Part shown: piece after piece, positions 32,118 to 62,688 of the stretch | How the letters are laid out: every line of letters starts with the position of its first letter | Numbering within the stretch: the stretch's first letter is position 1 | Assembly: GCA_034620365.1 (NCBI GenBank) | Contig: JAQGEQ010000343.1 | Location: 124,001-188,000 of the forward strand | Length of the DNA stretch: 64,000 bases | DNA from: Pegea sp. RAD2-039 | Taxonomy: Eukaryota > Chordata > Thaliacea > Salpida > Salpidae | Direction of reading: 5' to 3' | The notes under the pieces: generated by a model | The model's input: the letters and a program-made list of their open reading frames with translations, nothing else | Database searches by the model: none | Told to the model about the DNA's origin: nothing | Translations under genes and position numbers: made by a program

Positions 32118-33871
32118 TGTTTCCAACTGAACTTGAAAACCTAAATTTGGAACAGAAAAGTGATCAGAACAGTTACTAATGATAATTACATATTATTTGA
32201 TTCTAAAGGAAAATATTTTATATAAAATCATTAAATTTTTAACTTATTTTAACATAATTGAATTAACTAGTTTTTATCATAAGAAAACCTTAACTTAAGT
32301 TAGAAGAACTTTAATTTAAAATAATTCTGTACCGAAGCTTTACGTTTATATATATTAGGGAATCTATAAATAAAAGTTATTTAAAAGCTTTGAATGAAGC
32401 TATTAAAAGAAGTGTATTTTAGGCCGTAAAGAAAACGGAAAGCTTTTGTTGAAAGCCTTTGATGGAAATAATTTAAATTGAAAGTTAATTTAAAACGATG
32501 AAAATAAGATTCCGTTTATTAATTTCTTTATTATTCACTATGAAATGATTCGTGAACAATTCTTCAATTTAAAATAAATTATAAAATTAACTCTTGAAAA
32601 AATAAAGAATAAAGCCACGTAATATTCATTTTAATCTCTTTCTATTATTAGCTCAAAAATTTCATAATTTTTTAGTCACTGATGAAATTTAAAATCATTT
32701 TAAAGAAAAACTGAGTTTTATTTACAATATAAATTAGAAGAATATCTGATGACAATAAACCATTTCGAGAAGAGTTCAGCGTGAGTCCGAAAGATGTAGA
32801 TGACTCGAGATTAAATTTGATTAGTTTAGAGTTTACCAATAGGAAAAGGACTTCGAAGTCAAGGAGAGAAACCTCAAAACAAAGATAAGAACAGATAGAC
32901 AAATATCATTCCATGTAAGATACTTGTTGATGAGACTACATCATCTGATCTTCTTGATCTTCAGATGATCATTCTAGAGTTGTCCTCCCGAAATCAACAA
33001 ATACAAGTGAAAGTGATTATAAAAACGCATCTTTTGTGGATGTGAGTCTTTATCTTCATCTTTTTACTGACTGAGTTTCGAAGCAGTAGACGTAAAGTAG
33101 AGTTAAATCAGTTTACCTAAAATGTCGCCAAATAAAACCTCAGTTAGTAGTAGAAGAAGTTGTTGTATAGGGATCCGATATTATGAACCAAACCCTGACT
33201 AGATTACCATCAACAAAACATTGATTGAAAAAATGTTTAAAACACTTCAGTCAGTTGTTGGAAGCAGTTAAAAGTTTTAACGTTGTGTGTAAAGGTACAA
33301 ATTGAAAACTACTAAATTTTGATTCAGCAAATAATCTTTGCTATCGAATTAAAGAAGAAATTTAGAATAATTATTGAAATAATTTGTTGAAACTTGTTCA
33401 ACTCCAAAAATTAAATGTTCGAAATATTAGCAGAGTAATTTTACGCAGTTATTTTCCTTTATATAGATTTATATTAGTTTAGTGTTTGTGGTGTAAATTT
33501 GCTGATAAATTATATCGTTATAAAAATATTTTCTGAATTGACTCCTTTTAGCGACTTTTTACATAAAAGTTTTTATTTAAATTATCTAAGTACTATTTTT
33601 TTTAGCAAATATTTGATTTAATATAAATGGATAAGAGATAAGAAATTAGGAAGATGATGCAAGTTTGAGACTAGCGGTTAGAGAGTTTGACGATCAAAAT
33701 AACAAGAAGATAAAATTAAATTTGAATCTTTAAATCAAGATATATTCCTATTATTACGAAAGGCACTGTGAGAAGCAACACAAAAATATTGTGAAAAAAA
33801 GAAGCTCCCAGACCGGGAATCGAACCCCGGCCGCGTGCGTGAGAGCCAAGAATCCTAACCACTAGACCACT
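32069..33871. repeat. Left arm of large inverted repeat
   Basis: Reverse-complement match to 62202-64000 over about 1.8 kb with only scattered differences seen by eye. It contains the first codons and upstream region of the EndoU gene, one snRNA-like unit (RNA about 33382-33436) and most of a tRNA-Glu relic, where the similarity stops. Arms are separated by about 28 kb. Since the right arm runs off the window end, the full arm may be longer. Confidence 0.93.
33382..33436 (-). ncRNA. snRNA-like unit 1
   Basis: Promoter element 33475-33505, TATA 33458-33465, Sm-like site 33404-33412 (AATTTTTGG on the minus strand), perfect hairpin 33386-33402. The variable segment contains TACTCTGCTAATATTTCGAA, shared with units 6, 12 and 19. 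Ends are predicted from TATA distance and hairpin position, not measured. Confidence 0.5.
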
Positions 33872-33876
33872 TTTCC
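33805..33876 (-). pseudogene. tRNA-Glu (CTC) pseudogene at arm edge
   Basis: Keeps A box, anticodon loop CTCTCAC and T arm, but the 5' acceptor strand reads GGGAAAAG and no longer pairs with TCTGGGA, and the anticodon stem (CTTGG/GCACG) has mismatches. The inverted repeat ends within this gene. Confidence 0.85.
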
Positions 33877-34071
33877 CATCTCTTCAATTATATTAAATCA
33901 TAAATTTCCAAAAAAAATATATTTAGATAATTCAAGTAAAAACTTTTATGTAAAAAGTAGCTAAAAGAAGTCATTACAGAAAAATTTTTTGACGACAATT
34001 TATTAGCAAATTCACACCACAAACACTAAACTACAAGAAATTTATATAAAGAAACAAATCAGCGTACAACC

Positions 34072-34135
34072 GATTTTGAAATTTTTATTGGCGATATATT
34101 TTTCAATTTTTAGAGTTGAACAAGTTTCAACGAAC
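34072..34135 (+). ncRNA. snRNA-like unit 2
   Basis: Promoter element 34003-34033, TATATAAA 34043-34050, leader ATCAGCGTA, Sm-like AATTTTTAG 34105-34113, hairpin 34115-34131 perfect. Variable segment contains CCGATTTTGAAATTTTTATT, unlike the other units. Confidence 0.55.
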
Positions 34136-34674
34136 TAATTCAAAATTAAACTTAAATTATCTTCCTTTATTTAAAAGATAGGATTATTTGCTAAATCAAC
34201 ATTCAGTAGTTTTTAATTGGTACGTTTACACAACGTTTAACGATAAAATAATATTTTCTTTAAATTTTATAATAAAAATTAAAATTAGTTTGATTGATTT
34301 AACAAATATTAAAGTTAAATAAAAAAGTTAGATAATTAAAAAGTATTTTAAATATTTTAAGTGAAAAAAAACTATTTTCTATTCTATATAATAACTATTT
34401 AGATATTTCATAAAACCAGAAGAATTAAAGTAAACAGACAAATTGTCACTAAGTATTGATAACCAACTATCTAACATCCCTCTTATGACTTTTATGAGCT
34501 TTAACTACCTCTTTTATTTTATATCTAATTTACAAGTTTAATTTATATGAATATCAAAATAAATAAAAATAAAATACAAGTAAATTCTAACTATTCAAAA
34601 TTTCAAAATTCAATATTCCAAAATTTTTGACGTAAAACAAAAAATAATTAAAAAGCTTAAAATTATATTTTTTA

Positions 34675-34722
34675 GGAAACCGATTGCAGAGAAACCAACA
34701 ATAATTTTGTGAATCTATTTTA
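34675..34722 (+). pseudogene. Exon relic, ETDC family
   Basis: 48-bp block after a TTTTTAG acceptor, reading ETDCRETNNNFVNLF-type residues. The donor region has become TTTTAGGTAAAT, one base longer than in the sister copies. Same small exon recurs at 43034-43081 (-), 53920-53967 and 57675-57722. Confidence 0.45.
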
Positions 34723-35045
34723 GGTAAATATTAATTTGATTCTAAACTTAAATTCTTTTGTTTTATCAAGTATCTAAATTGTTATTCTATAGAAAACGAA
34801 ATACTTTTTTTCACTTGAGATATTTGAAAAAATTTGTACAGATCTTACTTTTTTATTTAACTTAAATTTTGCTGTTAAATCAATCAAACTAATTTTAACT
34901 TTTACTAAAGATTTTAAAATCTAAAGGAAACATTATTTTATTGTTAAATGTTGTATAAATGTACAAAATAAAATCCAAATGTTGATTCAACAAATAATCC
35001 TTTCTAGCAAATAAACAAAAATAATTTAAGTTTAATCTTAAATTA

Positions 35046-35102
35046 GTGAGTTGAAACTTGTTCAACTCCAAAATTTAAGAAAATTTATATATTTATTGAT
35101 CG
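35046..35102 (-). ncRNA. snRNA-like unit 3
   Basis: Promoter element 35141-35171 (with two changes, CACTACAAGCAC), TATA 35124-35131, Sm-like AATTTTGG 35068-35075, perfect hairpin 35050-35066. The leader reads GTCAGCGACTTA. Variable segment contains GCGATCAATAAATATATAAA. Confidence 0.5.
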
Positions 35103-35336
35103 CTTAAGTCGCTGACGTTTTACTTTATATAAATTTCTAGTAGTTTAGTGCTTGTAGTGTAAAATTGCTAATAAATTAGTTGGTCAAAGGAAAATTTTCT
35201 GAATTTCCTTCAATTAGATACGTTTTTCTTTAAAGTTTCTATTTAAGTCATCTAAATATCAAAAGACACAAATTAAAAACTAATAAATGTTTTGTTTTAA
35301 ACAGAAAAAGATACTTTTGATTTAATAATTAAAATA

Positions 35337-35391
35337 GTCTGTTGAATCGTATTCAACTCTAAAAATAACAACATTTCCAAATGAAGAAGAC
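35337..35391 (-). ncRNA. snRNA-like unit 4
   Basis: Promoter element 35430-35460, TATA-like TGTATAAA 35413-35420, Sm-like 35359-35367, hairpin 35341-35357 with a changed loop (TACGA) but an intact six-pair stem. Variable segment contains GCGTCTTCTTCATTTGGAAA. Confidence 0.5.
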
Positions 35392-35814
35392 GCTTTTACG
35401 CTGATTTGTTTCTTTATACAAAATTCTATTAGTTTAGTGTTTGTGGTGTAGAATTGCTAATAAATTATTTCGTCATAAAAATATTTTCTGAATTGACTCC
35501 TGTTAGCTACTTTTGACTTTAAAGTTTTTATTTGAATAATCTAAATAAGATTTTTCAATCAATTTTCTTACTTAATAAAATAGAAGAGATACGAAAATAT
35601 CAGAATGTGCAACTTTGAGACAAGTGAATAGAAAGCTTGAAGATAAAATTTATATTATATTATATATTATATTTGAATCTTTAAATTGAGAGATGTTTAT
35701 AATCTTAATAAAGGCACTAGAAAAATCTAGCAACACATTTTCGTATGCAGTAAAATTTTACTAGATTCAGCTTCCTGCTTTACTACTTGTTTGTCAACCA
35801 AACAAAAAACTAGT

Positions 35815-37770
<1,956 letters not shown>

Positions 37771-37959
37771 CGCTAAAATTTATATCAAGAATTTATTCAA
37801 CAAAATGTTTGGATTTAACTTAAAATAAAGAAATTATTAAACGATGCTAAAAAAATAATTTAAAATTGTTGCAAATTTTGAATTTTTACAAATGCTTCAC
37901 CAAAGACAATAAAAACGATAATTCTTTTGGTTTTATCCATTTATCTAAGTAGCGTGAGT

Positions 37960-38075
37960 AATTCTTGTAATTAAATCTTATCTTGTTTTATGTAAGCACA
38001 CATCAAGAGCTGGTTCTAAATCCAAATTTGCATTGTAGTCATCTGTTTTGGATAGTAAATTTTTAAGAGTTGAAT
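37960..38075 (-). pseudogene. Exon relic, DDYNANLDLE family
   Basis: On the minus strand reads KTDDYNANLDLEPALDVCLH before a stop. The same block on the plus strand at about 57112-57220 reads DDYNINLDLETALVVCLHK. Family unknown; it lies in the same repeat mosaic as the other small exons. Confidence 0.35.
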
Positions 38076-38349
38076 CAGCTTTACCTAAAATGTCGCCAAA
38101 TAAAACCTCAGTTAGTAGTAGAAGGAGTTGTTGTATTTGGAGTCGATTTTATTAACTAAACCCTGACTAGATTACCCTCAACAAAACATTGTTTGAAAAA
38201 ATATTTAAAACACTTCAGTCAGTTGTTGGAAGCAGTTAAAAGTTTTAACGTTGTGTGTAAAAGTACAAATTGAAAACTACTAAATTTTGAATCAGCAAAT
38301 AATCTTTGCTATCGAAATAAAGAAGAAATTTAGTATAATTATTGAAATA

Positions 38350-38405
38350 ATTTGTTGAAACTTGTTCAACTCTAAAAATTAAATGTTTGAAATATTAGCA
38401 GAGTA
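38350..38405 (-). ncRNA. snRNA-like unit 6
   Basis: Promoter element 38443-38473, TATA 38427-38434, Sm-like AATTTTTAG 38372-38380, perfect hairpin 38354-38370. Variable segment contains TACTCTGCTAATATTTCAAA, nearly the same as units 1 and 19. Confidence 0.52.
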
Positions 38406-38479
38406 CTTTTATGCAGATTTGTTCCATTATATAAATTTTTATTAGTTTAGTGTTTGTGGTGTAAATTTGCTAATAAATT

Positions 38480-39263
38480 ATTTCGTCAAAAAATATTTTC
38501 TGAATTGAATCCTGTTAGCTACTTTTTACTTAACAGTTTTTATCTAATAAATGAAATAAATTATTTGATTTTTTAAAAGATTTTCAAATATTTAATTAAA
38601 TAATTTTACTTTTGAATAAAATTATAACTAAAAAAGGTATATATAAAATTTAATAAGCAAAATGGCTAATCACTTAAATCAAAAAATCCTAATTTATAAA
38701 AAAACTTACATTAAACCTTAATTTAAAGTAAACTAAACTTATAATATTTGTATTTTCTTAAGACATCATAGCTAGATGGAAAACTGATTTTTATAAGTTT
38801 TTGATACATTTTATTTGAGTTTTTTATTTTGTGTTTTTGTATAGTTGTTATTATTGTTTAATTTTTACAAAACTGAAATTATTAATATTTCATAAAATAA
38901 AGCAAAAGACACTCAAATTATATAAATGCAAGTGAAGAAGCAAAAGAAGTAATATTTTGTTTCACATCAATTGTTAAAATCAATTTAACAAACAAATTAT
39001 AACTTGGTAATAGTCTTACCATCGAAGATACTGATGTAAGTGAAAACATCTTACTTGTATTATCTTCTACATTGTCCGGTTACAAATAAATGATTTAAAT
39101 AAAAGTTTTATTAAAATATTTTTCAATCTATATTTTGTTGATGGTAATCTAGTCAGGGTTTGGTTCATAATATCAGCTCCATACCCAGCAGCTCCTTCTA
39201 CTACTAACTGAGGTTTTAGTTGGCGACATTTTAATCAAAATGATTTAACTCCTAAAATTTTAC
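38480..39263. other. Repeat-mosaic DNA without gene
   Basis: AT-rich sequence. At 39140-39235 it holds the reversed version of the recurring block GTCGCCAAATAAAACCTCAG / CCTGACTAGATTACCATCAA that accompanies many snRNA-like units on their 3' side. Confidence 0.5.
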
Positions 39264-39471
39264 TATCCAAAGATCAATTATAGTGTTGCCCACAGCAGCT
39301 TTTTATTGGCTCTTTTTTTCGTTTACACCACAAGTGTGAAATAAGAGAATGAAACTCATAACCGTTTGAAACCCCTTAACTGTTAATAGTCTGAATCATA
39401 CCTGTGGTGTAAAGCAAGAAAAGAGCCAATAAAAAGCTGCTGTGGGCAACACTATAATTGATCTTTGGATA
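39264..39471. repeat. Foldback element with about 70-bp inverted ends
   Basis: The left end TATCCAAAGATCAATTATAG continues through GTGTTGCCCACAGCAGC; the right end is its reverse complement and finishes CTTTGGATA. Arms are about 70 bp, the loop contains AACCGTTTGAAACCCCTTAA. Half copies (one arm plus loop) lie at about 51889-52000, 53385-53475 and 56665-56790. No protein is encoded; MITE-like. Confidence 0.85.
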
Positions 39472-39754: not shown

Positions 39755-39809
39755 ATCCGTTGAAACTTGTTCAACTCCAAAAATTTACAACAAGATTTGA
39801 ATTAGCAAT
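39755..39809 (-). ncRNA. snRNA-like unit 7
   Basis: Promoter element 39846-39876, TATA-like GTTATAAA 39831-39838, Sm-like AATTTTTGG 39777-39785, perfect hairpin 39759-39775. Variable segment contains GCTAATTCAAATCTTGTTGT. Confidence 0.5.
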
Positions 39810-40269
39810 TTTAAGGCTGATTTTTTCGATTTTATAACTTTCTATTAGTTTAGTGTTTGTGGTGTAAATTTGCTAATAAATTATTCATCATATAAAATTT
39901 TCTATGTTGACTCCTGTTAGCTACTTTTTACTAAAAATTTTTTATCTAAATTATCAAAATAAGAATTTTCTAGCAAATTTATGATAAGTGTAAATGGATA
40001 AGAAATGGGAAATTATTTGGTTTAATATAATTGAAGAGATGGGAAAATAGCAAGATGAAGCAACTTTGAGACAAGCAGTTAGAGAGTTTGAAGATAAAAT
40101 AACAAGATGATAAGATTAAATTTGAATCTTTAAACCAAGAGATGTTTATAGTATTAATAAAGGCGCTAAATAAACTTCGCAACAAATTTACGATGCGGTG
40201 AAATTTTACTAGATTTAGCCTCCTGCTTTACTACTTGTTCGTCAACCAAACAAACAACTAGTGTAGCAA

Positions 40270-42165
<1,896 letters not shown>

Positions 42166-42647
42166 AATATTTGTGAGGATAAAGCTGAACTACTAGACCA
42201 TTATTACTCTTGTATCTTAGATTGAACATTTTCAATTTTAAAATAGATGAAAAGCTGTGTTGTTTGAACTACATATCAGAAGTGTATTTTACCGCATACG
42301 TAAATGTGTTGCTAAATTATTATAGTGCGTTTATTAATACTATAAACATCTCTTGATTTAAAGATTCAAATTTAATTTTATCTTCTTGTTATTTTGATCT
42401 TCAAACTCTCTAACCACTTGTCTCAAATTTGCATCATTCTGATATTTTCCCATCTCTTCAATTATATTAAATCATAGATTGATTATAAAAATATTTTTAG
42501 ATAATTTAGATAAAAACTTTTAAGTAAAAAGTAGCTAGCAGAAATCAATTCAGATAATTTTTTTTGACGAAATTATTTCTTAGCAAATTTACACCACAAA
42601 CACTAAACTAGTAAAACTTATATATAGCAACAAACCATCGTAAAAAT

Positions 42648-42704
42648 GTTTAATAAATACATTGAATAGTTGTTAATTTTTGAGTTGAACAAGTTTCAAC
42701 GAGC
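42648..42704 (+). ncRNA. snRNA-like unit 8
   Basis: Promoter element 42580-42610, TATATATA 42619-42626, leader CATCGTAAAA, Sm-like AATTTTTGA 42675-42683, perfect hairpin 42684-42700. Variable segment contains AATAAATACATTGAATAGTT. Confidence 0.52.
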
Positions 42705-43913: not shown

Positions 43914-43951
43914 GTCTGTTGAAACTACTCCAACTCCCATAATTCACTACA
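43914..43951 (-). ncRNA. snRNA-like unit 9, degenerate
   Basis: Promoter element 43990-44020 with several changes, TATA 43973-43980, but the Sm-like site is AATTATGGG and the region between TATA and hairpin (43918-43934) is 20 bp shorter than in the others. Probably a dead copy. Confidence 0.35.
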
Positions 43952-44389
43952 ATGGCGACTTCAAGTATTTTCTTTATATAAATTTCGATTAGTTTAGTGT
44001 TTGCGGTGAAGATTCGTTAATAAATTATTTCGTTATAAAAAATTTTCTGAATTGACTCCTGTTACCTAATTTTGACTTTATTGTTTTTATTTAAAATATT
44101 CAAATTTTTAAATAATTTATGATTTAATATAATTGAAGAGATTGGAAAATATCAGAATGATGCAACTTTGAGACAAGCAATTGGAGAGTTTGAAGATCAA
44201 GATAACAAGATGATAAAATTATATTTGAATCTTTAAACCAAGAGATATTTATAGTATTAAGAATGGCACTATAAAAATCTAGCAACATATTTACACATTT
44301 TCGTATGCTGTAAAATTTTACTAGATTTAGCCTCCTGCTTTATTGCTTGTTCGTCAACCAAACAAATAACTAACGTAGCAACACCCAAC

Positions 44390-45525: not shown

Positions 45526-45895
45526 CAGAGGTGTATTTTACCGCATACGTAAATGTAATGCTAAATTATTTTAGTGCCCTTCTTATAAATATAAATCTCT
45601 TGATTTAAAGATTCAAATATAATTTTATCATCTTGTTACTTTGATCTTCAAACTCTCTTACCGCGTGTCTCAAAGTTGTATCATTCTGATATTTTCCCAT
45701 CTCTTCAATTATATTAAATCATAAATTTATTACAAAAATATTTTTAGATAATTTAGATAAAAACGTTTAAGTAAAAAAGTAGCTAGCAGAAATCAATTCA
45801 GAAAATTTTTTTTGACGAAATAATTTTTTAGCAAATTTACACCACAAACACTAAACTAGTAAAACTTATATAAATAGACAAATCGGCGTAAAAAT

Positions 45896-45953
45896 GTTCA
45901 AGGAATATAATGTACCATTCATAATTTTTGGAGTTGAACAAGTTTCAACGAGC
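45896..45953 (+). ncRNA. snRNA-like unit 10
   Basis: Promoter element 45828-45858, TATATAAA 45867-45874, leader GGCGTAAAA, Sm-like AATTTTTGG 45923-45931, perfect hairpin 45933-45949. Variable segment contains CAAGGAATATAATGTACCAT. Confidence 0.55.
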
Positions 45954-46425: not shown

Positions 46426-46477
46426 AATAATCTTTGCTATCGAATTAAAGAAGAAATCTAGGATAAATATTGAAATA

Positions 46478-46533
46478 GTCTGTTGAAACTTATTCAACTT
46501 CTAAAATTAAATGTTTGAAATAATAGTATGGTA
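46478..46533 (-). ncRNA. snRNA-like unit 12
   Basis: Promoter element 46571-46601 (CACAAATGCTAAACTA), TATA-like TTTATAAA at about 46556, Sm-like AATTTTAG 46501-46508, hairpin 46482-46498 perfect. Variable segment contains ACCATACTATTATTTCAAAC, a diverged relative of units 1, 6 and 19. Confidence 0.45.
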
Positions 46534-47209
46534 CTTTAAAGCAGATATTTTCTATTTTATAAATTTCGATTAGTTTAGCATTTGTGGTGTAAATTTGCTA
46601 ATAAATTATTTCGTCAAAAAAATATTTTCTGAATTGATTGCTGTTAGCTACTTTTTACTTAAAAGTTTTTATTTAAATTTTAGTAAATAGATGATTTAAT
46701 ATAATTGAAAAGATGGGAAAACATCAAAATGATGAGTCTTTGAGACAAGTGGTTAGAGAGTTTGAAGATCAAATTAACAAGATGATAAAATTATATTTGA
46801 ATCGTTAAATCAAGAGATTTTTATAGTATTAATAAACGCATTATAATAATTTAGTATCACATTTACCTATGCGGTAAGATACACTTTTGATGTGCAGTTC
46901 AAACAACACAGCTTTTCATCTATTCTTAGATTGAAAATGTTCAATCTAAAAGACAAGATTAATATTAATAGGTTAAATTTGCTTTTAAATCTTCATCTTT
47001 ATTAGTTAATATGATGTCATGACTTCAACTTGACAACTTTTGATTATATTATACAGGTCATATAAAGTTATAAACATTTACTAAGTATTTAACTACCTTA
47101 CATGCTCTCAAACGGAAATTTTTTTTCTGATAATTTAATTCATTAGCAAATATACACCACAAACACTAAACTACTAGATATATATATAATGGAAAAACTC
47201 AGCGTTTGA

Positions 47210-47266
47210 ATATCTACATAAACAAATAATCTGTTAATTTTTGGAGTTGAACAAGTTTCAACAGAC
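47210..47266 (+). ncRNA. snRNA-like unit 13
   Basis: Promoter element 47143-47173, TATATATAA 47181-47189, leader CTCAGCGTTT, Sm-like AATTTTTGG 47236-47244, perfect hairpin 47246-47262. Variable segment contains TATCTACATAAACAAATAAT. Confidence 0.55.
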
Positions 47267-50202: not shown

Positions 50203-50211
50203 TGTTCTGTG

Positions 50212-50283: not shown

Positions 50284-50621
50284 TTTATTGATACTTATAA
50301 TATTAATACTATAAACATCTCTTGATTTAAAGATTCAAATATAATTTTATCTTCTTGTTATTTTGATCTTCAAACTCTCTAACCACTTGTCTCAAAGCTG
50401 CATCATCTTCCTATTTTCCCATCTCTTATCCATTTATGTTATATCAAATATTTTCTAGAAAAATTAAATTTAGATAATTTAAATAAAAACTTTTATGTAA
50501 AAAGTAGCTAAAAGGAGTTTACACAGAATTTTTTTTATAACAAAATAATTTATTAGGAAATTCACACCACAAACACTAAACTAATCGAAATTTATATAAA
50601 GTGAAAAATCAGCGTACAAGA

Positions 50622-50681
50622 AATACTTTATATGTTCAGATATGTTTTCAAATTTTTGGAGTTGAACAGCTTCCAACAAAC
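50622..50681 (+). ncRNA. snRNA-like unit 14
   Basis: Promoter element 50553-50583, TATATAAA 50593-50600, leader ATCAGCGTAC, Sm-like AATTTTTGG 50651-50659. Hairpin 50661-50677 reads GTTGAACAGCTTCCAAC with one mismatch. Variable segment contains AAATACTTTATATGTTCAGA. Confidence 0.5.
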
Positions 50682-51532
50682 TAAATCAAGAGTAAACTCT
50701 AATTATCTTTCCTTATTTAAAAGGAAGGATTATTTGCTGAATCAACATTCAGTAGTTTTTAATTGGTACGTTTACACAACATTTAACAATAAAATAATAT
50801 TTTCTTTAAATTTCAAAATTTTTAATAAAAATAAAAATTAGTTTGACTGATTTAAAAGAAATTAAAGTTAAACAGAAAAAGTTAGATCATTAAAAATTAT
50901 TTTAAATATTTTAAGTGAAAAAAAACTATTTTCTATTCTATAGAATAACTATTTATATATTTCATATAACCAAAAGAAATAAAGTAAAGAGACAAATTGC
51001 CACTAAGTATTGATAACCAACTATCTAACATCCCTCTTATGACTCATAATTCATCTTTCAAAAGACAGCTTTATGAAACATAACAAAAGTTAAAGTGATT
51101 TTCTTGATACACACAGGAATTTGTTTATGGGGTTTTTGAAATCACTAATACAAAAAGAGATAGCAATGAAAGTAATAAAATTCTATAAATAATATTAAAA
51201 AAAATTTGTCTATACAGTATTGAGGCTATTGATTCAAAAGGCTAAAGATTCAAATATAATTTTATCATCTTGTTACTTTGATCTTCAAACTCTCTAACCA
51301 CTTGTCTCAAAGTTGCATCATTCTGATATATTCCCATCTCTTCAATTATATTAAATCATAAATTTAATATAAAAATATTTTTAGATAATTTAGATAAAAA
51401 CGTTTAAGTAAAAAGTAGCTAGCAGAAATCAATTCAAAAAATTTTTTTTGACGAAATAATTTTTTAGCAAATTAATACCACAAACACTAAACTAATACAA
51501 ATGTATATAATGAAACAAATCAGCGTAAAATT

Positions 51533-51595
51533 ATTCGATGTAATCATTGACTTCCATAAGATTCAAATTTTAGAGTTGAATAAGTTTCAACAGAC
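51533..51595 (+). ncRNA. snRNA-like unit 15
   Basis: Promoter element 51464-51494, TATATAAT 51504-51511, leader ATCAGCGTAAAA, Sm-like AATTTTAG 51566-51573, perfect hairpin 51575-51591 with loop TAAGT. Variable segment contains TCGATGTAATCATTGACTTC. Confidence 0.52.
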
Positions 51596-54295: not shown

Positions 54296-54351
54296 GCTTG
54301 TTGAAACTTGTTCAACTCCAAAAATTAAAATGTTCACAATGTTTTTCTCAA
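54296..54351 (-). ncRNA. snRNA-like unit 16
   Basis: Promoter element 54391-54421, TATA 54374-54383, leader ATCAGCATAAAA, Sm-like AATTTTTGG 54318-54326, perfect hairpin 54300-54316. Variable segment contains GTTTGAGAAAAACATTGTGA. Confidence 0.55.
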
Positions 54352-54723
54352 ACAATTTTATGCTGATTTGTTATTATATATAAATTTTACTAGTTTAGTG
54401 TTTGTGGTGTAAATTTGCTAGAAAATTATTTAGTCAAAAAAATTTTCTGAATTGATTTCTACTAGCTACTTTTTACTTAAACGTTTTTATCTAAATTATC
54501 TAAAAATATTTTTATATTAAATTTATGATTTAATATAATTGAAGAGATGGGAAAATATCAGAATGATGCAACTTTGAGACAAGTGGTTAGAGAGTTTGAA
54601 GATCAAAATAACCAGATGATAAATTATATTTGAATCTTTAAATCAAGAGATTTATATTTATAAGAAGATTATTAAAATAATTTAGCAACACATTTACGTA
54701 TGCGGTAAAATAAACTTTTGATA

Positions 54724-55870
54724 TTCCCGGTCTGGAAACTTTTTTTTTAACAATTTTTTTCAGCCCGATTTATCTGGTAAAATGATGTTAGTGGATTTAT
54801 TGATGGCAGCAACTCGTTCAATAAATGATGATAAATACGTGATTGTATCAAATTACACGCAAACGCTCGATTTATGTGAAAAATTGTGCCGTATGAGGAG
54901 GTAGAGAACTTGATGATGATGAATTTCAATCAACATTTTGTTGTCAGATACGGATATGTAAGATTAGATGGAAGTATGACTATTAAAAAAAGATATAACA
55001 TCGTAGAACGAATTGTTTAATTCTTGTTGAAAATTTCTGTTTCTTATTTGGAAGCTTAAAAAAGTTTCTGCGCAGTTCTAGAGAAAGACCAAAATTGGCC
55101 GAAATATTTATTTTCTCAATTCTAAATGTTTTTTTTTAACAATTCTTTTAAAGAACAGTTTTTATATAATTGTTTCAAATGAAATGTTTTTTTATGCAGA
55201 CAAACAGGATATATTTTTATTTAAAGTCAAATTTCTTTTTAACTTTGATGTTCTTCTCGATATTTTGCTTTTACAGTTCTTTTCAATTCTATAGTTTAAA
55301 TATCTTTTTTATTTTAATAGGTTTTTGATTTGAAAATTTTAGATATTCTAATTTATATCTATTATTTACAGTTTTTGTAAGTTGAATTTATAAAAAGTTT
55401 TTTTAAACAAAGTATCATTAAAAATTTATTGATTTTTTTTGTCTTAAAATGTCAAAAGTTAACTTTGAAATGACTTAAATTTCAATAATTATTAGTAATT
55501 TTGAAATTATGTTTAGTACTAAATAAAATTTCTTTGAAAGTTATTACAAAATTCTATTTAAAATTTCTTCTATAAGTTTTTCCAATCGTTCCTTACAATA
55601 TCTTTTTTTAAAAGCTTATAACTTTGAAATTGAAAAGATGTAATCACTTTATATTGACTAATATTAAGAAAAAATAAGGTATTGTCAAAGAGTTATTTGA
55701 AAAACTTACCGTATAGTTATGAGAAAGTTTGCGTTGCATAATTTTTCATTAATTCCATTTTTAAATTATGAATGAATTGAAAGCTGCTTACTAAGTAAAT
55801 GTTGAAATGTTTTGAATTATTATTTATTTTAATTAGAAACTTTAAAAAAAGGCCATTTTGTTGGGTGTTG
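54724..55870 (+). pseudogene. RAD54L partial copy D (exon 9, start of exon 10, flank)
   Basis: Starts with the last 15 bases of the tRNA-Glu T arm, then exon 9 and exon 10 up to IVER, fused after CGA to the RAD54L downstream flank exactly as in copy C, and continues to GCCATTTTGTTGGGTGTTG. Opposite orientation to copy C. Not translatable as a motor. Confidence 0.9.
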
Positions 55871-56327
55871 CTTCACTAGTTGTTTGTTTGGTTGACGAAC
55901 AAGTAGTAAAGCAGGAGGCTAAATCTAGTAAAATTTCACCGCATACGTAAATTTGTTGCTAAATTTATTTAGTGCCTTTATTAATACTATAAACATCACT
56001 TGACTTAAAGATTCAAATATAATTTTATCTTCTTGTTATTTTGATCTTCAAACTCTCTAACTGCTTGTCTCAAAGTTGCATCATCTTCCTATTTTCCCAT
56101 CTCTTCAATTATATTAAACCAAATAATTTCCCATCTCCTATCCATTTACACTTATCATAAATTTGCTAGAAAATTCTTATTTTGTCTAGATAAAAAAATT
56201 TAAGTAAAAAGTAACTAACAGGAGTCAACATATAAAATTTTATATGATGAATAATTTATTAGCAAATCTACACCACAAACACTAAACTAATAGAAAGTTA
56301 TATAAAGGAAAAAATCAGCCCTAAAAT

Positions 56328-56381
56328 TGTTCATTTAAAATATTGTTGTTAATTTTTGTAGTTGAACAAGTTTCAACGGAT
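56328..56381 (+). ncRNA. snRNA-like unit 17
   Basis: Promoter element 56259-56289, TATATAAA 56299-56306, leader ATCAGCCCTAAAA, Sm-like AATTTTTGT 56351-56359, perfect hairpin 56361-56377. Variable segment contains TTCATTTAAAATATTGTTGT, distantly similar to unit 7. Confidence 0.52.
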
Positions 56382-56664
56382 TATTTAAATATTAAATCTA
56401 AAATATCTTTCTTTATTTTAGGAAGGATTATTCGTAGATTCAACATTTAGTAGTTTTTTATTTGTACCTTTACACAGCACTTAAAAACTTTTAACTGCTT
56501 CCAGTAAATGATTTAAGTTATTTTTCAATCAATGTTTTGTTGATAGTAATCTAGTCAGGGTTTTGGTTCATAATATCCACTCCATATCCAGCAGCTCCTT
56601 CTACTACTAACTGAGGCTTTATTTGGCGACATTTTAGGTAAAGTGGTTCAACTCTTAAAAATGT

Positions 56665-56790
56665 ACTATCCAAAGATCAATTATAGTGTTGCCCACAGCA
56701 GCTTTTTATTGGCTCTTATCTTTATTTACACCACAGGTATGATTCAGACTATTAACAGTTAAGGGGTTCAAACGGTTATGAGGTTCATTC
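56665..56790. repeat. Half copy of foldback element
   Basis: Left arm and loop of the foldback element, ending AACGGTTATGAGGTTCATTC. The right arm is missing, as at 51889-52000. Confidence 0.8.
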
Positions 56791-57111
56791 ACTTATTTCT
56801 AAATACTTTTTCATAAAAACAATTTTTTTATTATATAAACAAGTTTACTTCATAATCTACCGACCAATTTCTCTTGTAGTAGCTTCTATTGAATCTTCAA
56901 ATGATTATTTTTTTAATTTTAGACTCCATCTTTCAAAATTTTCTTTTTTCACATCAATTTGAATTTCTTTTTCAAAAATCTCCCAGTGATCAGTTGTTGT
57001 CCTATCTCCATCAATGGTTGTATTTCTCAATCAAGTCTCATTAACATCCTGATACAACAGATAAATATGAAACGCCGATGTGTCTTGAAAGATGCATACA
57101 TGATGATCAAC

Positions 57112-57722
57112 ATTCAGATGACTACAATATAAATTTGGATTTAGAAACAGCTCTTGTTGTGTGCTTACATAAAACAGGAAAAAATTTAATTACAAGAATT
57201 ACTCACCCTACTTAGCTAAATGGATAAAACCAAAATTATCGTTTATCAAGAAAACTGATTATTTCTATTTCTTCTTTTATCTAAATTTTAATTTAATTTG
57301 GTTTTAAGTTTTAGACTAAAGTATTTATTATAATATAGAATTGATTATTTAAGATCTAAATACCAGTTACTGATGTAATTATTTAATAAAATTTTGTAGG
57401 ATTTAGAAGATAATTAGATTAAAACTGGTTTGATTGCTTTCAGTCAAAGAGTAAACCATTTTAATTTATTTTTAAGAACTTACTAAACTCTCAGATTTAT
57501 ATACAAGAAGATAAAATAGTTTATTCATTTAAATGATTTGAAATAAGTTTTTCAGATTTAAAATTTTTGATTTAACTTTGATTTTTACTTAAACTATTAA
57601 AACAAACTTTCATTTATACAAAAGTTTTAACATAAGAGAAAACATAATTTAAAAACTTAAAATTATCTTTTTAGGAAACCGATTGCGGAGAAACCAGCAA
57701 AAACTTTGTGAATCTAGTTTTG
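57112..57722 (+). pseudogene. Small-exon family, decayed + copy
   Basis: Blocks DDYNINLDLETALVVCLHK (about 57112-57170), then 57400-57450, where DLEDN is followed by TAG, then 57675-57722 (ETDCGETSKNFVNLVL). The in-frame stop shows decay, while splice signals remain. Confidence 0.45.
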
Positions 57723-58052
57723 GTAAATATTAATTTGATCTTAAACTTAATTTCGTTTGTTTTTATGAAATATCTAAATTGTTATTCTATAGAATACAAA
57801 ATACTTTTTTTTTCACTTGAAACATTTTATGAAATTTGTACAGATCTTACTTTTTTATCTAACTTTAACTCTGTTGTTAAATCAATCAAACTAATTTTAA
57901 TTTTCATTAAAAATTTTAAAATTTAAACGAAATATTATTTTATTGTTAAATGCTGTGTAAAAACGTACAAATTAAAAACTACCAAATGTTGATTCAGGTA
58001 ATATTCATTTCTTAAAACTAAAAAGAGATAATTTAGGTTCAATCTTGAATTT

Positions 58053-58105
58053 GTTTGTTGAAACTTGTTCAATCTCAAAATTTAATTGAAAAAATCTTGA
58101 ATAAA
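58053..58105 (-). ncRNA. snRNA-like unit 18, degenerate TATA
   Basis: Promoter element 58144-58174 good, TATA replaced by TTTCTATAGA (about 58127-58134), leader ATCTGCGTAAAG, Sm-like AAATTTTG about 58077-58083, hairpin 58057-58073 with one end mismatch. Variable segment contains TTTTATTCAAGATTTTTTCA. Confidence 0.4.
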
Positions 58106-58608
58106 ACCTTTACGCAGATTTTTTAGTCTATAGAAATTTCTACTAGTTTAGTGTTTGTGGTGTAGATTTGCTAATAGATTTTCATCAAAAAAATAAATAA
58201 AAATAAATTGTGTTGTTCGAACTGCATATCAGAAGTGTATTTTGCCGCATACGTAAATGTGTTGCTAAATTATTATAGTGTCCTTCTTAATACTATAAAC
58301 ATCTCTTGATTTAAAGATTCAAATATAATTTTATCTTCATGTTATTTTGATCTTCAAGCTCTCTAACCGCTCGTCTCAAAGTTGCTTCATCTTGCTATTT
58401 TCCAATCTTTTATCCATTTATATTATATCAAAAAAATTTTCTAAAAAAATGGTATTTAGATAATTTAAATAAAAGCTTTTATGTAAAAAGTAGCTAACAG
58501 GAGTCAATTCAGAAAATATTTTTATAACGAAATGATTTATTAGCAAATTTATACCGCAAACACTAAACTAATAGAAATTTATATAAAGGAACAAATCAGC
58601 GTAAAATT

Positions 58609-58666
58609 GTATTTCATGTCAGTAGCCATTACTATAATTTTTAGAGTTGAACAAGTTTCAACAGAC
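58609..58666 (+). ncRNA. snRNA-like unit 11
   Basis: Promoter element 58540-58570, TATATAAA 58580-58587, leader ATCAGCGTAAAA, Sm-like AATTTTTAG 58636-58644, perfect hairpin 58646-58662. Variable segment contains ATTTCATGTCAGTAGCCATT, the least AT-rich in the set. Confidence 0.55.
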
Positions 58667-59355
58667 TATTTCAGTAATTATTCTAGCTTTCTTCTTTAAT
58701 TCGATAGCAAAGATTATTTGCTGAATCAAACTTTAGTAGTTTTCAATTTGTACCTTTACACAGAACTTTAAAACTTTTAACTGTTTCCAGTAAATGATTG
58801 AAATGTTTTAAACATTTTTTTCAATCAATATTTTGTTGATGGTAATCTAGTCAGAGTTTGGTTCATAATATCGACTCCAAATACAACAGCTCAATAGCAA
58901 TAATTCAAAAATATTATCAATATTATTGCTAATTCTTATGAAACTATTACAATCTTCAGTAAACTGAAATGTTTAAAATTTAACAAGAATCAGTAAAAGA
59001 AAACCAAAATATTGAACTTAAAACCATTAAATCTGCTTGAAAAGGTACTGAATAAAGTTTAAAAAAAAAATTGGAATATTTTTAGTATTAAGAAACAGAA
59101 TAAGATAAGCCTTAAAATTAGAAATTTATAAAATAGATTGTCTTAATAATATAAAGTTATCTACTTCATATAAAGTAAGTAATTATTAAACCAATAATTG
59201 TTTATTTATGTCACTTAAAAATATATTAAATTGAATAAAATCAGAGAATTCAAGAAAACAATTTCTACTTTTCTATTTAATTTCCTAGAGAGAAAAAGTT
59301 TCAAATAAAAATAAAGAAATTTGGAATAAACAACAAATTTGAGATGTTCTTTCTT

Positions 59356-59429
59356 GGCCGGTTAGCTCAGTTAGTTAGAGCGTCGTGTTAATAACGCGAA
59401 TGTCGCGGATTCGATCCCCGTACTGGCCA
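59356..59429 (+). tRNA. tRNA-Ile (AAT)
   Basis: 74 nt. Acceptor GGCCGGT/ACTGGCC, A box TAGCTCAGTTAG, anticodon arm TCGTG-TTAATAA-CGCGA with anticodon AAT, B box GATTCGATCC. One T-stem pair (A-C next to the loop) is non-standard, so function is likely but not certain. Confidence 0.85.
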
Positions 59430-59438
59430 TGTTCTGTG

Positions 59439-59510
59439 TCCTCGTTAGTATAGTGGTGAGTATCCCCGCCTGTCACGCGGGAGACCGGGGTTCGATTCCC
59501 CGACGGGGAG
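59439..59510 (+). tRNA. tRNA-Asp (GTC)
   Basis: 72 nt with all stems perfect: acceptor TCCTCGT/ACGGGGA, anticodon loop CTGTCAC, T arm CGGGG-TTCGATT-CCCCG. Recalled as identical to the common vertebrate tRNA-Asp sequence. Lies 9 bp after tRNA-Ile in the same orientation. Confidence 0.96.
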
Positions 59511-60960
59511 TTTATTTTGGCAACTTAAAATCTCATCATTGTTAATAGTAAAGATATTTTTTAGAATATTTTATTTGATTTTTAGTTATTTTATTGATGT
59601 ATTTGTGGATGATTTTAATTCTTTTCAAAAAATTATTTATATTTTACTTCAAATACTTATTTATTGTATTTCCTTCTTATAATTTGTTAATAATTCTTGT
59701 TGTTTTCGTGGATTTAATTATAAACAATTTACTTTTATGGGAAACCTACAATTTGCAATAACTACAAATTTAATTCGTATAACTGCTTTATAGATATAGA
59801 AATTTTGTTGATGATTTGTTAAACCTTTTTATCAATAAGATTAAAGTCAAAGCACGTACCATCTTGTATGACATGAGCAAATGACGAATTTAATTTCAAT
59901 TCAGGATTACACACTTCCATAAGATATTAGTATGTTACTAACAATGTAATTCAAGATATAGGTAGTTCAACAATGTGGTTCCTTCCCAGTTTTTTCAGTT
60001 CAATAAATCTTGAACAAGTTAACATTTCTAATAATAAACTGAAGCATCTCTCTAATGAAATCAAATGTTTGAGCACCGAAGAATAACTACCTATTCTAAT
60101 TAACTAATATATTTGCCACCCGGCATATTGAATTTATTGATTCTGAAACTGAGTAGTTTTTTAAAAAATCTCTTATACGAGTTTGGCAACCAGTCAACCC
60201 ATCCAAGTCTATCATGATGACATCTTTGTATGACATGAGCCATAACGTAGCTTACAGGAACAGTTTGTTATCTGCTAAGATACCTGTACTCTTGAAATTA
60301 TTTAGTTTTGTTGATGAAAAAGAGACTCTTTCGGGTGATGACAAGATTTTTACAGAATTACGAAAAGCAATCGTGCAAGTAACTAGACGAGGATCATTGA
60401 AAACAGCCAGAATGAGGATTTATCCCAGAAACCTTTCCTGTTAAAGTTGTATCCTGCTCTAAGCGATGTTTTCTGAAGCAATTGCAAGAAATAACAAAAA
60501 ATAATTATCTTCAAGTCTAATAATTCATAACAAGAAAGTTTCTATTTGCAAATTGAGAAAATCGATTGTATTTTTTCTACGTATATTTTCTTGCCTTACC
60601 TTAATCATACTTCTTTTAAAAGAAATCTCAATTTCTTAGGTGGATTATTTGATTCTGAAATCTATTCTCTTCTAGAACAATCAAAATTTATTTTTTACAA
60701 ACTGCTGAGTTTATTTTTTGTGTTGAAAATTAAATATTTTCCAGTGAATTAAGGATAGACAGATTTAAACAACTTAAACAGATTTGCTTGAACAAGTTAT
60801 TGACAACATTATCTAATACACTATCATTATTTTCAAATAGTTTACATAAACTACAATTCATTTTCACATCAATAACCTCAGTATTTTATAAACAAAATTT
60901 TTATATATTTGTTATAGTCATTTATTACTTTCATTATTATCTCTTTTTGTATTAGTGATT
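59511..60960. other. Possible leucine-rich-repeat gene relic in AT-rich DNA
   Basis: At about 59970-60085 the plus strand reads LEQVNISNNKLKHLSNEIKC, a leucine-rich-repeat pattern, before a stop. At 60214-60444 an open frame contains SLYDMSHNVAYRNSLLSAKI and DDKIFTELRKAIVQVTRRG. Neither has splice signals I can connect. Could be remains of an LRR signalling protein; the remaining sequence holds nothing recognisable. Confidence 0.25.
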
Positions 60961-61414
60961 TCAAAAACCCCGTAAACAAATTCCTGTGTATCAAGAAAAT
61001 CACTTTAACTTTTGTTATGTTTCATAAAGCTGTTTTTTGAAAGATGAATTATGAGTCATAAGAGGGATGTTAGATAGTTGGTTATCAATACTTAGTGACA
61101 ATTTGTCTATTTACTTTATATCTTCTGGTTTTATGAAATATCTAAATAATTATTATATAGAATAGAAAAAAATTTTTTTTTCTTAAAATATTTAAAATCA
61201 ATTTTATTGATCGAACTTTTTTATTTAACATTAATTTTTGTTAAATCAATCAAACAAATTTTAATTTTTATCAAAAAATTTAAAATTTAAAGAAAATATT
61301 ATTTGATTGTTAAATGCTGTGTAAACGTAACAATTAAAAACTACTGAATATTGATTTAGCAATTAATCCTATCTTTTAAATAAAGGAAGATAATTTAAGT
61401 TTAATCTTGAATTA

Positions 61415-61468
61415 GATCGTTGAAACTTGTTCAACTCCAAAAATTGAAAGATGTACAGCCAAATTCAA
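61415..61468 (-). ncRNA. snRNA-like unit 5
   Basis: Promoter element 61507-61537, TATA 61490-61497, leader ATCAGCGACTTA, Sm-like AATTTTTGG 61437-61445, perfect hairpin 61419-61435. Variable segment contains GAATTTGGCTGTACATCTTT. Confidence 0.55.
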
Positions 61469-61924
61469 AATAAGTCGCTGATTTGTTCTTTTATATAAAT
61501 TCCTTGTAGTTTAGTGTTTGTGGTGTGAATTTGCTAATAAATTGTCGTCAAAAAATTTTTCTGTAATGACTTCTTTTAGCTACTTTTTACTTAAAAGTTT
61601 TTATCTAAATTATCTAAAAATATTTTTATAGCAAATTTATGATTTAGTATAATTGAAGAGATATCAAAATATCAGAATGATGCAACTTTGAGACAAGTGG
61701 TTAGAGAGTTTGAAGATCAAAATAACAAGAAGATACAATTAAATTTGAATCTTTAAATCAAGAGATGTTTATAGTATTAATAAACGCACTATAATAATTT
61801 AGCAACACATTTACGTATGCGGTAAAATACACTTCTGATATGTAGTTCAAACAACACAGCTTTTCATCTATTTTAAGATTGAAAATGTTCAATCTAAGAT
61901 ACAAGGATAATAATGGTCTAGTAG

Positions 61925-62267
61925 TTCATCTTTATCCTCACAAATATTCAAACAAGATTTTATAACTTTTTATCTGAGATTTTTTCGCAATTATATTTCA
62001 ATATAGAAATAATTAATTTCTAAAAAGTTGATTTTTTGCATCTTTTTTGACACTTTAAAGTAACTTTTTAGAAATGAGTTGAAATTTGCAACAATTTTAG
62101 ATTATTATTATAGCATCGTTTCATAATTTTTTTATTTTTAAGTTAAATTAGAACATTTTGTTGAATAAATTCTCAATAAAAATAGTAAACACAAGTCCCA
62201 GGTGATCTGGTGGTTAGGATTCTTGGCTCTCACGCACGCGGCCGGGGTTCGATTCCCGGTCTGGGAG
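61925..62267 (+). pseudogene. RAD54L partial copy E (exon 8 end, intron 8, tRNA)
   Basis: Matches RAD54L 15920-16254: the end of exon 8 (now TTTTATAACT at the splice donor, so unspliceable), intron 8 and the tRNA-Glu, then stops and switches to repeat sequence. The large inverted repeat starts inside the tRNA. Confidence 0.88.
62196..62267 (+). pseudogene. tRNA-Glu (CTC)-like, right arm copy
   Basis: Acceptor stem intact (TCCCAGG/TCTGGGA), but the A box is TGATCTGGTGG and the anticodon stem CTTGG/GCACG has two mismatches, the same changes as the left-arm relic. Likely inactive. Confidence 0.75.
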
Positions 62268-62633
62268 CTTTTTTTTCACAATTTTTTTGTGTTGCTTCTC
62301 ACAGTGCCTTTCTTAATAATAGGAATATATCTTGATTTAAAGATTTAAATTTAATTTTATCTTTTTGTTATTTTGATCTTCAAACTCTCTAACCGCTAGT
62401 CTCAAACTTGCATCATCTTCCTAATTTCTTATCTCTTATCCATTTATATTAAATCAAATATTTGCTTAAAAAAATAGTACTTAGATAATTTAAATAAAAA
62501 CTTTTATGTAAAAAGTAGATAAAAGGAATCAATTCAGAAAATATTTTTATAACGAAATAATTTATCAGCAAATTTACACCACAAACACTAAACTAATATA
62601 AATCTATATAAAGGAAAATAACAGTGTAGAAGT

Positions 62634-62688
62634 ACTCTGCTAATATTTCAAACATTTAATTTCTAGAGTTGAACAAGTTTCAACAAAT
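62634..62688 (+). ncRNA. snRNA-like unit 19
   Basis: Arm partner of unit 1. Promoter element about 62565-62595, TATATAAA 62605-62612, Sm-like AATTTCTAG 62658-62666 (one change from unit 1), perfect hairpin 62668-62684. Variable segment contains TACTCTGCTAATATTTCAAA. Confidence 0.48.

What the first reader, a model, noticed from the sequence alone, without database searches (positions are those of the whole stretch)
33382..62688. Array of 19 snRNA-like genes with interchangeable 5' segments
Seen: 19 copies on both strands share, in fixed order, a 31-nt element with CACCACAAACACTAAACTA, a TATA box 8-9 bp later (in the copies where I measured it), a leader around AATCAGCGTAAAA, a 25-40 nt segment that differs between copies, AATTTTTGG, and hairpin GTTGAACAAGTTTCAAC. 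Known: snRNA genes use a proximal sequence element plus (for some polymerases/species) TATA; Sm rings load on RAU4-6GR followed by a 3' stem-loop; U7 has this size and a targeting 5' end. Inference: these encode roughly 50-65 nt Sm-class RNAs whose 5' ends act as different guides or baits, an undescribed multigene small-RNA system. Alternatives: a repeat family derived from one snRNA gene, or SL RNA relatives.
Basis: partly seen in the sequence, partly recalled or inferred. Interest (0 to 1): 0.95.

Follow-up and report, generated by a model that had tools for sequence, protein, structure and literature searches.

The report
Hypervariable sea-squirt Sm-RNA gene array
A sea-squirt-like genome carries an array of over a hundred small gene copies that use the same on-switch as the cell's splicing RNAs but whose RNA front ends mostly differ and seem to change faster than the DNA around them, which looks like an undescribed repertoire of small guide RNAs, though no RNA or target has yet been shown.

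Summary
The array runs far beyond the window: 130 exact promoter elements in the assembly, reversed control 0, and 120 copies with element and hairpin in the sequence I could read; some may be alleles. The genome is most likely an ascidian: it carries the Ciona spliced leader 272 times, including a tandem SL array elsewhere.

The promoter element is this genome's own snRNA element, shared by the U1, U2, U5 and U6 loci read. Its TATA spacing matches U1/U2/U5 (Pol II), not U6, and puts the RNA 5' end at the start of the variable segment. Predicted RNA, about 55 nt: variable 5' segment (mostly 20-35 nt), Sm-like site, hairpin.

In disjoint paralogue pairs the segment diverges about 2 to 2.6 times faster than flanks. 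I read this as a diversifying repertoire of Sm-class guide RNAs. Guide function is inferred: the one guide tested genome-wide had one off-array near-complement (expected 0.02 at its 2 mismatches, about 0.5 at the 3 allowed). Expression is untested.

The parts
33386..33493 (-). copy 1: PSE to hairpin; predicted RNA 33434 to about 33386; variable segment 33413-33434
34015..34131 (+). copy 2; predicted RNA 34074 to about 34131; variable segment 34074-34104
35050..35159 (-). copy 3; predicted RNA 35100 to about 35050; variable segment 35077-35100
35341..35448 (-). copy 4; predicted RNA 35389 to about 35341; variable segment 35368-35389
38354..38461 (-). copy 5; predicted RNA 38402 to about 38354; variable segment 38381-38402
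39759..39864 (-). copy 6; predicted RNA 39805 to about 39759; variable segment 39786-39805
42592..42700 (+). copy 7; predicted RNA 42651 to about 42700; variable segment 42651-42673
43918..44008 (-). copy 8: degenerate, 5 nt of predicted segment and no AT3-6 at the Sm position; probably a pseudogene
45840..45949 (+). copy 9; predicted RNA 45899 to about 45949; variable segment 45899-45922
46482..46589 (-). copy 10; predicted RNA 46530 to about 46482; variable segment 46509-46530
47155..47262 (+). copy 11; predicted RNA 47214 to about 47262; variable segment 47214-47235
50565..50677 (+). copy 12; predicted RNA 50624 to about 50677; variable segment 50624-50650
51476..51591 (+). copy 13 (family 12); predicted RNA 51535 to about 51591; variable segment 51535-51564; the one guide tested genome-wide
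54300..54409 (-). copy 14; predicted RNA 54350 to about 54300; variable segment 54327-54350
56271..56377 (+). copy 15; predicted RNA 56330 to about 56377; variable segment 56330-56350
58057..58162 (-). copy 16; predicted RNA 58103 to about 58057; variable segment 58084-58103
58552..58662 (+). copy 17; predicted RNA 58611 to about 58662; variable segment 58611-58635
61419..61525 (-). copy 18; predicted RNA 61466 to about 61419; variable segment 61446-61466
62577..62684 (+). copy 19; predicted RNA 62636 to about 62684; variable segment 62636-62657

Best explanation
The array is a large family of true snRNA-type genes in an ascidian. SHOWN BY SEQUENCE: each unit has this genome's snRNA PSE and, in most copies, a TATA box at the spacing of its Pol II snRNA genes, then a hypervariable stretch of mostly 20-35 nt, an Sm-like site and a hairpin. 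INFERRED: Pol II with the SNAPc-type factor starts transcription at about position 57-58 from the PSE, so the RNA begins with the variable segment; it receives an Sm ring and a 3' hairpin end, giving a capped RNP of about 55 nt. The variable segment evolves faster than flanking DNA. I take this as diversifying selection on a base-pairing 5' end: a repertoire of U7-sized Sm-class antisense RNAs that bind, mask or mark changing target RNAs. My confidence by step: snRNA-type genes 0.95; Sm-class RNAs are made 0.85; diversification beyond neutral 0.75; guide or antisense action 0.42. The confidence below is for the whole chain, so it cannot exceed its weakest step; I lowered it from a draft 0.5 for that reason and after stating the target test at its full threshold.
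For: Same PSE, within 0-3 mismatches, in the 8 U2, 8 U6, 6 U1 and 1 U5 loci read. Spacing from CCAC: U1/U2/U5 TATA at 27-29 (none recognised in one of eight U2 loci), mature 5' end at 57-58; U6 TATA at 32-34, 5' end at 63-64; array TATA at 26-29 in 93 of 120, at 19-25 in 14, none recognised in 13. Information falls to about 0.1-0.6 bit from about the predicted start and rises again at the Sm site, using one copy from each of 35 families. In 46 disjoint closest pairs mean divergence is flank 0.046, promoter 0.035, variable 0.121, Sm+hairpin 0.030; variable exceeds flank in 34 of 46 (p = 1.3e-5); ratio 2.60, family bootstrap 1.96-3.24. Because those pairs were chosen for close flanks, I re-paired by one flank and measured on the other: 0.125 against 0.066 (31 of 46, p = 0.0012) and 0.130 against 0.049 (35 of 46, p = 3e-6). 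Indel events per site 0.0144 against 0.0055. Example: two copies with flanks 96.9% identical differ at 10 of 24 aligned segment positions. AT3-6 at the Sm position in 111 of 120, RAT4-6GR in 62. One guide tested genome-wide: 9 array hits and one off-array site with 2 mismatches, control 0; expectation 0.02 at 2 mismatches or fewer.
Against: No RNA data at all. Its pairing does not extend past the 24-nt core better than with shuffled flanks (59.5% of shuffles as good), and it lies in an open stretch with frame breaks and no significant known family. Guides pair with single U1, U2, U5 and U6 RNAs no better than reversed guides (means differ by 0.3 kcal/mol or less), and with the SL RNA less well. 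No target stood out in the array contigs (best 17 nt; no chance control run). 12 of 46 closest pairs do not show faster segment evolution; some families keep nearly fixed segments. Restricting to the 35 pairs with low segment divergence gives 0.072 against 0.040, p = 0.011. Slower change of Sm+hairpin and promoter is significant in two of three pairings only (p = 0.11 and 0.08 in the third). Raised rates are not strictly limited to the segment: one 3-nt bin 25 nt before the start (0.148) and the last 13 nt before it (0.06-0.09) are raised too. A transition/transversion difference (p = 0.013) is not significant in low-divergence pairs (p = 0.51). The segment is modelled as partly paired (mean 0.41, hairpin 0.65). 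Some copies may be alleles: three copies of a neighbouring kinase gene are about 99% identical.
Confidence: 0.4

Rival explanations
1. The RNAs are an Sm-class RNA family whose job lies in the Sm site and hairpin (for example an Sm-ring or snRNP helper in trans-splicing, as SmY is in nematodes). The 5' segment is an idle spacer that mutates fast because transcription starts there.
For: Animals with SL trans-splicing can carry a second Sm-RNA family (SmY, 12 genes in C. elegans; PMC11229312, passages), and this genome has a Ciona-type SL. Start-site mutation hotspots exist in humans (PMC12658150, passages); abstract starts in a listing tie R-loop regions and snRNA genes to excess new variants (listing only). 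Indels rise as much as substitutions in the segment, and bins just before the start are somewhat raised, as mutation would do.
Against: The human start-site hotspot spans several hundred bp both ways, whereas here 15-nt bins over 400 bp on each side stay at 0.02-0.10 against 0.153 in the segment (235 pairs). DNA just past the hairpin is not raised (0.03-0.06 in 5-nt bins 25-69 nt from the Sm start, 0.07-0.09 in the next two). SmY has two stem-loops with a conserved first one, not seen here.
Confidence: 0.33
2. They are spliced leader RNAs or relatives with variable leaders.
For: SL RNAs are short Pol II Sm RNAs; the Ciona SL RNA is 46 nt with a 16-nt leader (PMC7986045, passages).
Against: This genome's SL genes are a separate tandem array of about 199-bp units with exon ATTCTATTTGAATAAG followed by GTAAGT. 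The listed segments share no exon and no common GT position by eye, and family 31 has no GT in its segment.
Confidence: 0.03
3. A decayed or amplified repeat derived from one snRNA gene, kept alike by duplication and gene conversion, without function.
For: Units are clearly duplicated and recombined: nearest upstream and nearest downstream neighbours agree in only 29% of 119 copies. At least one window copy is broken. Slower evolution of the shell is significant in two of three pairings only.
Against: Promoter and Sm+hairpin diverge less than flanks (p = 0.02 and 0.003) and the segment more, which passive duplication does not give. Exact 19-mers on contigs C1-C246 occur only on C102, so the exact element is not dispersed like a mobile repeat.
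Confidence: 0.14
4. Pol III small RNAs (U6-like promoter) rather than Pol II Sm RNAs.
For: PSE plus TATA is the Pol III arrangement in vertebrates (recalled).
Against: In this genome the U1, U2 and U5 loci read have TATA too (one U2 locus excepted), and the array has their spacing, not U6's. The T4-6 run in the Sm site would stop Pol III early (recalled rule).
Confidence: 0.03

Closest known systems
U7 snRNA (Rfam RF00066)
   Same: Size, order (targeting 5' end, Sm-type site, 3' hairpin), Pol II snRNA-type promoter (U7 features recalled)
   Different: Canonical-type T4-6 Sm-like site instead of U7's special one (recalled); over 100 diverse copies rather than a few alike; no U7 match over cut-off in this genome, nor found in Didemnum in print (PMC8704543, passages)
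Dictyostelid Class I RNAs
   Same: Many short RNA genes behind an snRNA-type upstream element about 60 nt from the start, often clustered, with a variable part (PMC7919456, passages)
   Different: Class I RNAs have a stem joining 5' and 3' ends, a conserved 11-nt motif, are mainly cytoplasmic and possibly Pol III; here an Sm-like site, a 3' hairpin only, and the 5' end itself varies
Nematode SmY RNAs
   Same: Small multigene family of Sm-site RNAs in an animal that trans-splices (PMC11229312, passages)
   Different: SmY has two stem-loops around the Sm site and a conserved first loop; 12 genes in C. elegans
Ciona spliced-leader RNA
   Different: Fixed 16-nt exon with splice donor; its genes lie elsewhere in this genome

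Membership tests
Pol II snRNA-type genes | The genome's own snRNA PSE upstream | tested here: met
   CCACAAACACTAAACT shared, within 0-3 mismatches, with the 8 U2, 8 U6, 6 U1 and 1 U5 loci read
Pol II snRNA-type genes | Pol II rather than Pol III PSE-TATA-start spacing | tested here: met
   TATA at 26-29 in 93 of 120 copies (19-25 in 14, none in 13); U1/U2/U5 27-29, U6 32-34
Sm-class RNA | Sm site followed by a 3' hairpin | tested here: met
   AT3-6 in 111 of 120, RAT4-6GR in 62 of 120; by sequence only
Sm-class RNA | RNA exists, is TMG-capped and binds Sm proteins | not testable with these tools
   no RNA or protein data
U7 snRNA | Match to RF00066 | tested here: not met
   Window scan lists only tRNAs; best in genome 23.1 bits, cut-off 34, not on C102 or C247
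U7 snRNA | 5' end complementary to the histone downstream element | not tested
   106 distinct leader+segment strings among 120 copies make a single histone target unlikely
Spliced leader RNA | Constant leader exon with GT donor | tested here: not met
   Segments differ; SL genes found elsewhere
SmY RNA | Two stem-loops around the Sm site, conserved first loop | tested here: not met
   No common 5' stem by eye in the 40 folds shown of 101 distinct predicted RNAs folded; no Rfam match
Dictyostelid Class I RNA | 5'-3' closing stem and conserved 11-nt motif | tested here: not met
   5' end is the variable part; features

The most novel reading that the evidence does not exclude
A chordate carries a genomically encoded, diversifying repertoire of over a hundred Sm-ring antisense RNA genes, each an independent snRNA-type unit with its own guide of mostly 20-35 nt. 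It would act as an Sm-based counterpart of piRNA or CRISPR-like repertoires against changing RNAs such as selfish elements or viruses, or on rapidly evolving host mRNAs.
Probability: 0.28. Interest if true: 0.96.

Novelty: categorically new. Interest (0 to 1): 0.85.

Why it matters
Known Sm-class RNAs are mostly near-invariant housekeeping parts (recalled). A large Sm-RNA family whose conserved shell holds a fast-changing 5' end would be, as far as I know, the first diversified repertoire built on the snRNP chassis, and in the sister group of vertebrates. It is directly testable by small-RNA sequencing and Sm immunoprecipitation. If the segment is only an idle spacer, it is still an unannotated Sm-RNA family (new member of a known kind) and a natural record of mutation at snRNA start sites. 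The 'categorically new' mark is for the repertoire, not for its parts. Ten literature searches over open-licence PubMed Central showed nothing like it among the titles and abstract starts listed.

Tried and rejected
SL RNA: rejected. U7: no match over cut-off. Known Rfam family: only tRNAs at gathering score in the window; a lax scan of one copy gave only matches far below gathering scores. Pairing with U1/U2/U5/U6/SL RNA: no better than reversed guides, worse for SL (90 distinct guides). Targets inside the array contigs: best 17 nt, top 60 of 1053 hits looked at, no chance control, not pursued. Taxon by COX1: no hit. Transition/transversion test for selection: difference in all 46 pairs (p = 0.013), none in the 35 low-divergence pairs (p = 0.51), so not used as evidence. 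Extension of the family-12 guide/C71 pairing past its 24-nt core: no better than shuffled flanks. Joined-guide BLAST and its shuffled control found nothing, not even the guides' own genes, so they say nothing. One search printed only locus lengths because its search strings did not match. One search failed on a script error and was rerun.
Full report
WHAT IS THERE. The element CACCACAAACACTAAACTA occurs 19 times in the window at up to 3 mismatches (expected 0.03) and the hairpin GTTGAACAAGTTTCAAC 19 times (expected 0.61), paired one to one on both strands. The window is C247:124001-188000 of a 105.7-Mb genome in 387 contigs, which holds 130 exact copies of the 19-mer and none of its reversed control. 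The 100 places listed, in contig order, are 86 on C102 and 14 on C247, so contigs C1-C246 have the exact element only on C102; the other 30 were not listed. A DNA search with one copy listed 40 scored matches of 198 candidates, all 40 on C102 or C247, up to C247:290,395. I fetched C102:1-200000.

COPIES. In C102:1-200000 plus the window, 166 places resemble the 16-nt PSE core at up to 4 mismatches. 120 of them, 101 on C102 and 19 in the window, pass the joint rule of element (3 mismatches or fewer) plus hairpin; the other 46 lack the hairpin or are 4-mismatch matches with a poor one. The 120 hold 106 distinct leader+segment strings in 35 families at edit distance 10. A caution on number: a kinase gene next to the array is present three times, once by the window array and twice on C102, at 1267 of 1270 and 903 of 909 identical residues in the two comparisons made. 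C102 and C247 may therefore partly be alleles or very recent duplicates, and the count per haploid genome may be smaller.

WHICH ORGANISM. One piece reads ATTCTATTTGAATAAG followed by GTAAGT, a leader with its splice donor. The Sm motif that the paper gives for Ciona SL RNA is not in that piece. I infer an ascidian with a Ciona-type leader; the species is not known to me. A COX1 search was empty.

PROMOTER. U2, U6, U1 and U5 genes were found by Rfam models. Upstream of the loci read (8 U2, 8 U6, 6 U1, 1 U5, fewer than the models found) lies the same element, within 0-3 mismatches of CCACAAACACTAAACT. Measured from its first C, TATA starts at 27 or 29 and the mature 5' end at 57-58 in U1, U2 and U5 (no TATA match in one U2 locus, L031), but at 32-34 and 63-64 in U6. 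In the array TATA starts at 26-29 in 93 of 120 copies (27 in 66), at 19-25 in 14, and was not recognised in 13. So most of the array has Pol II snRNA-type promoters.

THE RNA. A profile over one copy from each of the 35 families shows conservation from about 40 nt before the element to about 4 nt before the predicted start (the last 8 nt of that at 0.5-1.0 bit), then 0.1-0.6 bit over the start of the segment, then high values at the Sm site, the hairpin and, less strongly, about 60 nt beyond. The segment, from predicted start to Sm site, is 20-27 nt in 96 copies, 30-35 nt in 22, 45 in one and 5 in one. The Sm window matches RAT4-6GR in 62 of 120, AT4-6RR in 39 more and AT3-6 in 10 more; 9 have none of these, some of them with CTTTT instead, among them window copy 43918-44008, which I take as a pseudogene. 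The 101 distinct predicted RNAs average 55 nt (35-75); mean pairing probability is 0.41 in the segment, 0.45 in the Sm site and 0.65 in the hairpin.

EVOLUTION. 119 of the 120 copies have full flanks; of 416 pairs passing a k-mer screen, 353 have flanks at least 85% identical, with substitution divergence 0.074 (far upstream), 0.061 (promoter), 0.189 (segment), 0.039 (Sm+hairpin), 0.081 (3' part) and 0.087 (far downstream). In 46 disjoint closest pairs: flank 0.046, promoter 0.035, segment 0.121, Sm+hairpin 0.030, 3' part 0.054; the segment exceeds the flank in 34 of 46 (p = 1.3e-5). The ratio is 2.60 (family bootstrap 1.96-3.24). Choosing pairs by close flanks favours this result, so I paired by one flank and measured on the other: 0.125 against 0.066 (31 of 46, p = 0.0012) and 0.130 against 0.049 (35 of 46, p = 3e-6). 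In the first of these promoter and Sm+hairpin are slower than flank (p = 0.0009 and 3e-5); in the second not significantly (p = 0.08 and 0.11). In 235 pairs with flanks of 90% or more, 15-nt bins over about 400 bp on each side lie at 0.02-0.10, against 0.153 in the segment. In finer bins one 3-nt bin 25 nt before the start is at 0.148 and the last 13 nt before the start at 0.06-0.09. The segment outranks at least 90% of same-length windows in 21 of 46 pairs, mean rank 0.73. Against: 12 of 46 closest pairs do not show the excess, and with only the 35 low-divergence pairs it is 0.072 against 0.040 (23 of 35, p = 0.011; this choice favours low values). One flank cluster of 15 copies carries seven segment families, one of 8 five, one of 6 three; many carry one. 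Mosaics are common: of 7021 pairs, 287 are alike in both flanks, 222 only upstream and 370 only downstream.

WHAT IT MAY DO. The pattern of a fixed promoter, a fixed Sm-hairpin shell and a fast-changing 5' end fits a guide repertoire. The one guide that I tested by a genome-wide pattern (family 12, in the window at 51535-51564) gave ten matches at up to 3 mismatches: nine array copies and one other, C71:15324-15347, with 2 mismatches; control 0. Composition predicts 0.02 sites at 2 mismatches or fewer, and 0.3-0.5 at the 3 that I had allowed, so the evidence lies in how close the match is, not in its being found. The opposite strand there lies in an open, Leu/Gly-rich stretch with frame breaks. 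Pfam and PHROGs gave no significant family for its four pieces; for the last piece, a relative search in viral contigs found none and a structure-sequence search gave only weak matches. Pairing beyond the 24-nt core is no better than with shuffled flanks. I call this a lead, not a demonstration. Over 90 distinct guides, pairing with one U1, U2, U5 and U6 RNA each is not meaningfully better than reversed controls, and with the SL RNA it is weaker.

RIVALS. The strongest rival is an Sm-class helper RNA with an idle, mutation-prone start. I weigh against it that the excess is concentrated in the segment, while a reported human start-site hotspot spans several hundred bp (PMC12658150, passages), and that DNA just past the hairpin is not raised. 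Polymorphism data would decide.

KNOWN SYSTEMS. It works most like U7 (recalled), but the U7 model finds nothing over its cut-off and the Sm-like site is of the canonical type. It is not an SL RNA, does not show the SmY layout (passages) nor that of dictyostelid Class I RNAs (passages). In Didemnum, a U7 gene was likewise not found by homology (PMC8704543, passages). The literature listings that I read show no such array; only open-licence papers are held, and only the best-ranked titles are listed.

Noticed in passing
window 24145-27957; C102:4051-7856 (L009); C102:155804-159616 (L024): A 1270-aa uninterrupted protein-kinase ORF (resembles STK36/Fused by eye; Pfam Pkinase) sits beside the array. 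C102 holds a second 1270-aa ORF (1267 of 1270 identical) and a third copy whose 920-aa ORF is 903 of 909 identical and is followed by a 344-aa ORF. Recent duplicates or uncollapsed haplotypes: open.
   Followed up: partly
window 37693-62268; C102:35672-198889: tRNA-Glu, tRNA-Asp and tRNA-Ile genes are interspersed in the array (7 in the window, one of them outside the array at 16183; 19 in C102:1-200000). A tRNA-Ile lies about 0.8 kb downstream of 8 of the 10 family-20/21 copies, so they duplicate together.
   Followed up: partly
C4:1134950-1135470 (L052): Spliced-leader gene array with units of about 199 bp, without the AGCTTTGG Sm motif reported for Ciona; single and doubled copies of the 16-mer are scattered over other contigs, perhaps from reverse-transcribed trans-spliced mRNAs.
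   Followed up: partly
C71:15324-15347 (L054:589-612): Off-array near-complement of the family-12 guide in an open but frame-broken Leu/Gly-rich stretch.
   Followed up: yes
window about 5600-6000: Looks by eye like part of a LINE-type ORF (read only); not tested.
   Followed up: no
about 45-75 nt after the hairpin start in the array copies: A moderately conserved TTTATTTAAAAGAAAGGATTATTTG-like stretch that resembles the recalled metazoan snRNA 3' box; not compared with the U1/U2 3' flanks systematically.
   Followed up: no
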